A stretch of 32,307 nt of DNA from NCBI GenBank assembly GCA_011391275.1, contig JAABQW010000067.1, positions 1-32,307 of the forward strand. Reading direction: 5' to 3'. The position numbers were made by a program, and so were the translations under genes. Each line of letters starts with the position of its first letter. The first letter of the stretch is position 1. The notes beneath the pieces were generated by a model. The model ran no database searches. It saw nothing but the letters and a program-made list of their open reading frames with translations, and was not told the DNA's origin. Below are positions 16,480 through 18,957 of this stretch, one piece after another. Source of the DNA: Betaproteobacteria bacterium (lineage in GTDB: Bacteria > Pseudomonadota > Gammaproteobacteria > Burkholderiales > Usitatibacteraceae).

Positions 16480-16580
16480 GAAGGCTTCCTCTTCCCGGTC
16501 GGCCCGCGGTCGTCGTGGGCGGCCAGACAATAGCACGGCGACCGCCGTCGCCGCCTTCGCCGCGCTGCTACACTGCCCCC

Positions 16581-17303
16581 ATGAAAGTGGGACTCTTCGT
16601 CACCTGCCTCGTGGACCTCGCCCGGCCCGGGATCGGGTTCGCGGCGCTGAAACTCCTCGAGGGCGCCGGCTGCGAGGTCGTGGTGCCCGAATCCCAGACC
16701 TGCTGCGGCCAGCCCGGCTACAACTCGGGCGGGCGGGAGGTCGCGAAGGCGCTCGCTCGCAAGGTGCTGGCCGAGTTCCGCGACTGCGACTACGTGGTGG
16801 CCCCTTCGGGCTCCTGCTCGGGGCAGATGAAGGTCGCCACCGTGCACGACCTCTTCAAGGGGGAGCCCGACCTGCCGGAGTTCGAGGCGCTCGCGGCGAA
16901 GTGGTACGAGCTCTCCCAGTTCCTCGTTGAAGTGCTCAAGGTCGACAAGGTGCCCGGCCGGTTCGACGGCACGGTCACCTACCACGACAGCTGCTCGGGG
17001 CTTCGCGAGCTGGGCGTGAAGATGCAGCCGCGCTACCTGCTGCAGATGGCCGGCGCGAAGATCGCGGAGATGGACGGCGCCGAGCGCTGTTGCGGCTTCG
17101 GCGGCACCTTCTCCATCAAGCTGGGCGACATCTCGACGCGCATGTGCGAGAACAAGTGCGAGTCGGTCCGCGCCACGGGTGCGGGCGCCATCGTGGGCGG
17201 CGACCTCGGTTGCCTGCTCAACATCGAGGGGCGCCTGCGCAGGACGGGGGACAGGGACACGAAGGTGCTGCACTTCGCGCAGGTGATCGCCGGCGAGGGC
17301 TGA
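16581..17303 (+). CDS. lutA: (Fe-S)-binding lactate utilization protein LutA/LldE
   Basis: CCGQPGYNSGG and CCGFGGTFSIKLGDISTRM cysteine-rich CCG-domain motifs; followed by LutB and LutC homologues. Confidence 0.92.
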   Translation: MKVGLFVTCLVDLARPGIGFAALKLLEGAGCEVVVPESQTCCGQPGYNSGGREVAKALARKVLAEFRDCDYVVAPSGSCSGQMKVATVHDLFKGEPDLPEFEALAAKWYELSQFLVEVLKVDKVPGRFDGTVTYHDSCSGLRELGVKMQPRYLLQMAGAKIAEMDGAERCCGFGGTFSIKLGDISTRMCENKCESVRATGAGAIVGGDLGCLLNIEGRLRRTGDRDTKVLHFAQVIAGEG

Positions 17304-17311
17304 CGGTTGCG

Positions 17312-17495
17312 GTAAACCTTTGGAACACGGATGAACACGGATGGACACGGATGAACACGGATAAGGCAATGCGAGAGACTCGAATCCACTGCCGGAGTCC
17401 GCGAACCTCACGCCTTGGGCACGGGCACCATCGAAGTGGGGGTTATCCGTGTTCATCCGTGTCCATCCGTGTTCATCCGTGTTCCAAAGGTTTAC
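17312..17495. repeat. Perfect inverted repeat, 53-bp arms (17312-17364 / 17443-17495), 78-nt loop, built from 10-bp AACACGGATG units
   Basis: Left arm GTAAACCTTTGGAACACGGATGAACACGGATGGACACGGATGAACACGGATAA is the exact reverse complement of the right arm. Confidence 0.93.
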
Positions 17496-17514: not shown

Positions 17515-18927
17515 ATGCAGATCCAGAGCATGTTCTTCAAGGAGCGCGCCACCGAGAAGCTCGGCGACGCCCTGCTGCAGGGGAACATGAAGAAGGCCAA
17601 GGGCAAGTTCGTCGACGGCCGTGCCCGGGCCGTGGCTGAGTTCGGCGTGTGGGAGGAGTTGCGCACGCACGCGGCGAAGATCCGCGACCGCGCGCTCGAC
17701 AACCTCGACGCCTACCTGGTGGAGTTCGAGAGGAACGCCACGCGGCGCGGCGCGGTGGTGCACTGGGCGGAGAGTGCGGAGGACGCCTGCCGCATCATCG
17801 TCGACATCGCGACCCGCAACGGCGTGAGGAAGGTCGCCAAGTCGAAGTCGATGGTCTCCGAGGAGGTGAACCTCAACGAGCGGCTGGAGGCCGCGGGCGT
17901 GCAGGTCGTCGAGACGGACCTCGGCGAGTACATCCTGCAGCTCGCCAAGGAGCCCCCCTCGCACATCGTGGCGCCCGCCGTGCACAAGTCGAAGGAGCAG
18001 GTGGCCGAGCTCTTCGTGCAGGCCCACGGCAAGCCCCGGCTGACCGAGATCCCGGCCATGACGCGCGAGGCGCGCGAGGCGCTGCGCGACCATTTCCTCA
18101 CGGCGGACATGGGCATCTCCGGGTCCAACTTCGTCATCGCGGAGACGGGCACGACCCTCACGGTCACCAACGAGGGCAACGCGGACATGGTGACGACGCT
18201 GCCGCGCATCCACTGCGTGATCACCGGGATCGAGAAGGTGATCGGCACCTTCGAGGACTTCGCTTCCCTCATTCGATTGTTGCCCCGCTCGGCCATCGGC
18301 CAGACGATCACCAACTACCTCACGCTCACCACGGGCATGAAGATGCCCGGCGACACCGACGGCCCGGAGCAGATGCACATCGTGCTCGTGGACGCGGGGC
18401 GCACGAAGCTCGTGGGCGGCGACATGCAGGAGATGCTGCGCTGCATCCGCTGCGGCGCCTGCATGAACCACTGCCCCGTCTACCAGAACGTGGGCGGCCA
18501 CGCCTACGGCTGGGTCTACCCCGGCCCCATGGGGTCGATCCTCACCCCGGTGTACGTGGGCCTCGAGAACGCGGGCGACCTGCCCAACGCGGCGACCTTC
18601 TGCGGCGAATGCGCGGTGGCCTGCCCGGTGAAGATCCCGCTCCCGGACCTGATGCGGAAGCTGCGCGAGCAGCAGTTCGACCGCAAGCTCAGGCCGTGGG
18701 CGGAGCGCATGGCGATCGCGGGGTGGAGCTTCATGGCGACGCGGCCGGCGCTCTATGCGCTCTTCGCGAAGGTGGGGGCGCGGGTGGGGAGCTGGCTGGG
18801 CGGGCGCGAGGGGCTGATCCACTCGCTGCCCGGGATCGACGGGTGGACGAAGGGGCGGGACATGCCGGCGCCGGCGGGAAGGACGTTCCGCGAGTTATAC
18901 AAGCAAAGGTCCCGGGAACACGGATGA
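17515..18927 (+). CDS. lutB: Iron-sulfur lactate utilization protein LutB/LldF
   Basis: FFKERATEKLGDALLQGNMKKAKGKFVDGRARAVAEFG; two 4Fe-4S clusters CIRCGACMNHCPVY and CGECAVACPVKIPL. Confidence 0.93.
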   Translation: MQIQSMFFKERATEKLGDALLQGNMKKAKGKFVDGRARAVAEFGVWEELRTHAAKIRDRALDNLDAYLVEFERNATRRGAVVHWAESAEDACRIIVDIATRNGVRKVAKSKSMVSEEVNLNERLEAAGVQVVETDLGEYILQLAKEPPSHIVAPAVHKSKEQVAELFVQAHGKPRLTEIPAMTREAREALRDHFLTADMGISGSNFVIAETGTTLTVTNEGNADMVTTLPRIHCVITGIEKVIGTFEDFASLIRLLPRSAIGQTITNYLTLTTGMKMPGDTDGPEQMHIVLVDAGRTKLVGGDMQEMLRCIRCGACMNHCPVYQNVGGHAYGWVYPGPMGSILTPVYVGLENAGDLPNAATFCGECAVACPVKIPLPDLMRKLREQQFDRKLRPWAERMAIAGWSFMATRPALYALFAKVGARVGSWLGGREGLIHSLPGIDGWTKGRDMPAPAGRTFRELYKQRSREHG

Positions 18928-18957
18928 ACACGGATAACGGCGGATGAACACGGATGA
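18918..18957 (+). repeat. Four 10-bp units of the AACACGGATG repeat (single orientation)
   Basis: AACACGGATG AACACGGATA ACGGCGGATG AACACGGATG; overlaps the lutB stop codon (18925-18927). Confidence 0.85.

What the first reader, a model, noticed from the sequence alone, without database searches (positions are those of the whole stretch)
17312..17495. 53-bp perfect inverted repeat made of 10-bp AACACGGATG units inside the lutA-lutB gap
Seen: each arm carries four consecutive 10-bp units (AACACGGATG/GACACGGATG variants) plus a TAAACCTTTGG cap, and the arms match perfectly over 53 bp with a 78-nt loop. The 10-bp period is close to the DNA helical repeat. In a lutABC transcript this would form a very long RNA stem immediately before the lutB ribosome-binding region. 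Inference: a mobile or amplifying snap-back repeat, possibly an RNase III target or a differential-expression element within the operon. From unverified recall, similar ATCCGTGTTCATCCGTG strings occur in other bacterial genomes, but I know of no described function.
Basis: partly seen in the sequence, partly recalled or inferred. Interest (0 to 1): 0.7.

Follow-up and report, generated by a model that had tools for sequence, protein, structure and literature searches.

The report
Mobile palindromes partnered with a nuclease
The hairpin between lutA and lutB is one of about 30 related palindromes scattered through this bacterial genome, built from the same 10-base unit that brackets the genome's only copy of a small uncharacterised nuclease-like gene (GxxExxY); the same gene-plus-array pairing recurs across many bacterial and archaeal phyla and looks like an undescribed class of mobile repeat.

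Summary
It belongs to a dispersed family: at least 32 loci in this 3.27-Mb MAG, mostly two inverted arms around a loop of about 75 nt. One copy instead encloses a 127-aa GxxExxY protein (TIGR04256/PF13366, predicted PD-(D/E)XK nuclease), the only such gene in the genome. Of 80 GxxExxY loci from many phyla, 66 sit inside inverted short-unit arrays scoring above every distal control. Unit type tracks protein subfamily: CRCNRA-T units for FLEK-type proteins (73 vs 2), CRCNRA-G for LLES-type (41 vs 0). Within the genus, the common dispersed unit matches the unit around the livH-livM GxxExxY gene in 6/6 genomes; the species without the gene has neither. Orthologous sites are empty in two species and elsewhere hold elements of different unit type. 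The genome's Y1 transposase has a different REPIN, so this is not REPIN-RAYT. Best reading: non-autonomous palindromes spread and replaced in trans by GxxExxY. Nuclease activity, mobility in the laboratory and any effect on lut expression are untested. The open-access papers searched do not describe it.

The parts
17312..17364 (+). Left arm: cap GTAAACCTTTGG (17312-17323) plus four 10-bp units (17324-17363) and one base
17365..17442 (.). 78-nt loop; loop length is similar in other copies, sequence only weakly related to them for this copy
17443..17495 (-). Right arm, perfect reverse complement of the left arm
18915..18957 (+). Single arm at the lutB-lutC junction (units ACACGGATGAACACGGATAACGGCGGATGAACACGGATGA); one unit supplies the lutB stop codon (EHG*)
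16515..17303 (+). lutA-like CCG-domain reading frame (host gene, upstream neighbour)
17515..18927 (+). lutB (host gene, downstream neighbour), TIGR00273 E 2.7e-145

Best explanation
The palindrome is a non-autonomous member of a dispersed element family whose arms are arrays of a 10-bp unit. Its partner is the genome's single GxxExxY gene, a minimal PD-(D/E)XK nuclease-like protein that lies between livH and livM inside arms of the same units. Shown: shared units, dispersal, presence/absence, replacement at fixed sites, and tracking of unit type with protein subfamily. Inferred: GxxExxY binds its own units, cuts or nicks palindromes that carry them (for example as cruciforms), and repair or hairpin-mediated copying spreads palindromes in trans and replaces old ones in place. 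Elements lie in gene-gene junctions, here inside an operon, where the RNA would form a long hairpin.
For: Dispersed copies with clean control. One copy encloses the only GxxExxY gene, whose ATG lies in a unit. In 28 genomes of the family, unit pattern and gene coincide with two exceptions. 66 of 80 GxxExxY loci from many phyla lie in inverted arrays scoring above all 60 distal controls. Unit core tracks protein subfamily, 73 T/2 G against 0 T/41 G. Dominant dispersed unit equals the unit of the resident livH-livM gene in 6/6 genus genomes, and the genome without the gene has neither unit. Two cyanobacterial genomes each carry many copies of their own gene's unit variant. Empty orthologous sites in G004 and G006, different occupants elsewhere. 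Invariant D, E-x-K and GxGxxExxY residues; high-confidence model nearest to Cas4 and lambda exonuclease folds.
Against: No activity is shown for any GxxExxY protein in the results here. No target-site duplication was recognised. Loops of short elements are not deletion derivatives of the gene-bearing element. Five of ten GxxExxY genomes in other groups have few dispersed copies, and G009 has a unit match without a gene. The 6/6 match in the genus has a chance probability of 1/20, the two patterns were run at different mismatch limits, and the loci in the subfamily test are not phylogenetically independent.
Confidence: 0.6

Rival explanations
1. Another enzyme moves these palindromes; GxxExxY is a passenger or a regulator that binds the arrays, for example an autorepressor whose operator-like arrays have spread.
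For: The gene's start codon lies inside the array, so binding there could control it; nuclease activity is not shown; the short loops are unrelated to the gene.
Against: The single Y1 transposase of the genome is bracketed by an unrelated REPIN; no other candidate recurs with the arrays, although not every transposase family was searched; invariant nuclease-type residues argue for catalysis.
Confidence: 0.22
2. Independent insertions at preferred target sequences, rather than exchange of the inside of an old element, explain why orthologous sites hold elements of different unit type.
For: Loops of different-type occupants are not convincingly related (max z 4.7); insertions sit in narrow gene-gene junctions, which may be the only tolerated places.
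Against: Site-specific outer ends are kept across unit types (S6: GATAACTC in 5/5 filled species, against GCATCACTC or GCGTCACTC at S3 and S4), as expected if the ends stay while the inside is swapped.
Confidence: 0.35
3. The hairpin is mainly a host regulatory or RNA-processing element of the lut operon (RNase III site or differential-expression hairpin).
For: Very stable RNA stem (z -15); lies between lutA and lutB in six of eight genus species.
Against: Absent from lutA-lutB in G004 and G006; unit and loop replaced between species; about 30 copies at unrelated loci.
Confidence: 0.08

Closest known systems
REPIN-RAYT (REP doublets with a Y1 REP-associated transposase; PMC3116915)
   Same: Inverted pairs that form hairpins, many extragenic copies, singlets as apparent remnants, and a low-copy resident partner gene flanked by the same repeats
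   Different: Partner is a PD-(D/E)XK-type GxxExxY protein, not a Y1 transposase; arms are tandem arrays of 9-10-bp units; the genome's own RAYT carries a different REPIN
MITEs (non-autonomous elements with terminal inverted repeats)
   Same: Short, non-coding, inverted ends, many copies
   Different: No transposase and no target-site duplication recognised; almost the whole arm is tandem units
23S rRNA intervening sequences with S23 protein (PMC4990558)
   Same: Small ORF inside a long inverted repeat that forms an RNA stem; mobility proposed, not proved
   Different: Other protein family and not in rRNA here; S23 genes sit in 7-nt-unit arrays, GxxExxY genes in 9-10-nt arrays
Homing endonuclease elements (general knowledge)
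   Same: A small nuclease linked to its own recognition sequence, and replacement at fixed sites
   Different: Recognition is inferred only; copies are mostly gene-less palindromes at many sites, not one intron or intein site

Membership tests
REPIN-RAYT | Inverted pair of repeats with spacer, dispersed in extragenic space | tested here: met
REPIN-RAYT | Partner gene is a Y1 (HUH) transposase flanked by the same repeat | tested here: not met
   Only Y1_Tnp hit, G000:C179, is flanked by CTGAAGGGGACGCTACCCTTCAG-type repeats, no ACACGGAT within its locus
REPIN-RAYT | Repeats carry the GTAG or CGTC tag of REPs (PMC3733652) | not tested
   No systematic check was made
MITE | Terminal inverted repeats, no coding capacity, many copies | tested here: met
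MITE | Target-site duplication | tested here: inconclusive
   Empty sites in G004 and G006 show no clear duplication, but flanks are diverged
MITE | Same ends as an autonomous transposon | tested here: inconclusive
   Same arms bracket a GxxExxY gene, not a known transposase
GxxExxY (TIGR04256 / PF13366) | Partner protein scores above the curated cut-off | tested here: met
   135.1 bits against 35; 132.2 against 22
PD-(D/E)XK nuclease (partner protein) | Conserved D...E-x-K in the right fold | tested here: met
   Invariant residues; model resembles Cas4 and lambda exonuclease at borderline E-values near 1e-3
PD-(D/E)XK nuclease (partner protein) | DNA cleavage activity | not testable with these tools
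   Needs biochemistry
23S rRNA IVS / S23 | S23 (PF05635) ORF, insertion in 23S rRNA | tested here: not met
   No PF05635 match in G000; the element lies between lutA and lutB
Known structured RNA (Rfam 15) | Match to any Rfam model | tested here: not met
   No match up to E = 1

The most novel reading that the evidence does not exclude
GxxExxY plus inverted decamer or nonamer arrays is a widespread class of mobile DNA, unrelated to transposase-driven elements, in which a minimal PD-(D/E)XK nuclease recognises its own repeat unit, spreads array-bearing palindromes in trans and drives in-place replacement of older copies, so that repeat unit and nuclease subfamily co-evolve; S23 with heptamer arrays may be a parallel system.
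Probability: 0.5. Interest if true: 0.92.

Novelty: new variant of a known kind. Interest (0 to 1): 0.82.

Why it matters
It would explain a common but unexplained kind of repeat in bacterial genomes (strings such as AACCGCAGATGAACGCAGATG and AACACGGATGAACACGGATG) and give a testable role to GxxExxY, a family named only for a motif. The core base after CRCNRA differs between two protein subfamilies, a ready-made test of recognition. In-place replacement at fixed sites would be an unusual form of genome turnover. For annotation, it warns that long hairpins at operon junctions and the repeat-encoded starts of these proteins come from such arrays.

Tried and rejected
RAYT as partner: rejected. 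Phage or plasmid cargo: one GxxExxY locus found in 2.9 million viral contigs (pattern-based scans) and 8 of 72,556 plasmid records. Known RNA family: none. Solved-structure homologue by sequence: none convincing. Loop as deletion derivative of the gene-bearing element: not supported. Homology of lutA-lutB loops between unit types: inconclusive. Intrinsic terminator: no T-run follows the right arm (sequence). Searches of papers for the unit strings and for GxxExxY found no description.

Full report
Observation. The palindrome is as described. Each arm is a 12-nt cap plus four decamers, and the one variant decamer (GACACGG) is mirrored in both arms. It fills the lutA-lutB gap without touching either coding sequence or the CGGAG before lutB. 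As RNA it folds far better than shuffles. No Rfam family matches.

It is a dispersed family. The own genome (G000, 3.27 Mb, 80.8% complete) has 55 forward and 60 reverse matches to the double unit and none with the reversed control, in at least 32 loci. Most are two inverted arms around a loop of roughly 72-90 nt. Two end types, chimeras of them, single arms and duplicated left arms occur. Many loops are homologous between copies, also between end types. Arms of one element agree better than re-paired arms of different elements (0.916 vs 0.851 identity; none of 20,000 re-pairings reached the observed mean), so arms are homogenised or selected as a pair.

One copy carries a gene. In G000:C274 the arms lie about 390 nt apart and enclose a 127-aa ORF whose ATG lies inside a unit. 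It is GxxExxY (TIGR04256, E 1.3e-39; PF13366 PDDEXK_3, E 1.5e-38) and the only such gene found in the genome. Across 16 homologues GxGxxExxY, D, E-x-K and NF are invariant. The AF2 model of a homologue (L174, pLDDT 96) resembles Cas4, lambda exonuclease and LHK-Exo at borderline E-values. By contrast, the one Y1 transposase found is bracketed by an unrelated REPIN.

The association is general. In 28 genomes of the family, unit pattern and GxxExxY gene coincide with two exceptions, G009 and G016. For 26 GxxExxY genes of relatives, the inverted-repeat score of the flanks has median 54.5 against 20 for mispaired flanks. For 80 loci from many phyla, archaea and cyanobacteria included, 66 exceed all 60 same-locus distal controls; 33 exceed the 95th percentile of mispaired flanks, a conservative control because arrays of different loci resemble one another. 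Unit type depends on protein subfamily: CRCNRA-T with FLEK proteins (73 T, 2 G), CRCNRA-G with LLES proteins (0 T, 41 G; Fisher p 2e-29, loci not independent).

Within the genus, the livH-livM GxxExxY element is built of ACACGGAT units in G000, G004 and G007 and of CGCCGAT units in G001, G002 and G003. The commoner dispersed unit agrees in all six. Forward/reverse matches, ACACGGAT then CGCCGAT: G000 46/54 and 1/2; G004 9/7 and 1/0; G007 45/36 and 2/2; G001 7/9 and 54/50; G002 0/1 and 38/38; G003 4/6 and 22/16. The patterns were run at 1 and 2 mismatches, so the counts are not strictly comparable, and part of the G002 count is CGCRGAT variants. G006 has no gene and neither pattern; in G005 no livH-livM copy was found. 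With three and three labels, 6/6 agreement has a chance probability of 1/20. In two cyanobacteria the listed dispersed units match the resident gene's own variant (Aliterella ACGCAGAT, Iningainema ACACAGAT); five of ten such genomes in other groups have few copies.

Orthologous sites. Eight G000 element sites were compared with up to seven other species. G004 and G006 are empty at lutA-lutB and at several other sites. Filled sites hold elements of different unit type in different species. Loops are clearly related only between some same-type occupants (z up to 43), never between different types (at most 4.7). Outer ends can be site-specific and shared across unit types (S6: GATAACTC in 5/5 filled species). 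This suggests that the inside of an element is exchanged while its ends stay; independent reinsertion remains a rival. At lutA-lutB the G002 loop is the inverted G005 loop (z 28.5). As far as read by eye, insertions lie at gene-gene junctions. At lutB-lutC a single arm supplies the lutB stop codon.

Interpretation. The system works like REPIN-RAYT (PMC3116915): dispersed palindromes and a resident low-copy partner gene bracketed by the same repeats. It is not a member, since the partner is not a Y1 transposase. I infer that GxxExxY recognises its own units and that cutting plus repair spreads and replaces palindromes. Recognition rests on correlation only, cutting on conserved residues and fold only, and no target duplication was recognised. 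Any effect on lut expression is untested.

Literature. Among 5.39 million open-access papers GxxExxY occurs in two; the passage read in one only names it as a domain near a reverse transcriptase (the other was not opened). Searches for unit strings found only papers on other subjects among those listed. Subscription journals and preprints were not searchable.

Noticed in passing
L144-L172 (S23/PF05635 loci, e.g. L145, L151, L164): S23 (23S rRNA IVP) genes outside rRNA often sit between inverted arrays of 7-nt units such as CAGTAGG or GAGTAGT; 13 of 25 exceed the control 95th percentile. Possibly a parallel system.
   Followed up: partly
L058:1240-2240 (G000:C179): The genome's only Y1 transposase (RAYT-like) is bracketed by its own REPIN, CTGAAGGGGACGCTACCCTTCAG and its inverted partner.
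   Followed up: partly
L257 and L259 (lutA-lutB gap of G005 and G002): The loop is inverted between the two species at the same site (z 28.5), as if flipped by recombination between the arms.
   Followed up: partly
window 18915-18957: A single arm at lutB-lutC supplies the lutB stop codon through the unit (EHG*); other species have other units there, and G004 and G006 none.
   Followed up: partly
L032:2660, L050:965, L053:948, L255: Extra truncated left arms stand in front of complete elements, often broken at AACACGG, as if by partial duplication or nested insertion.
   Followed up: no
G493 (genome of L237, Treponema zioleckii): High copy number of the CRCRGAT double unit, 66 forward and 101 reverse.
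   Followed up: no
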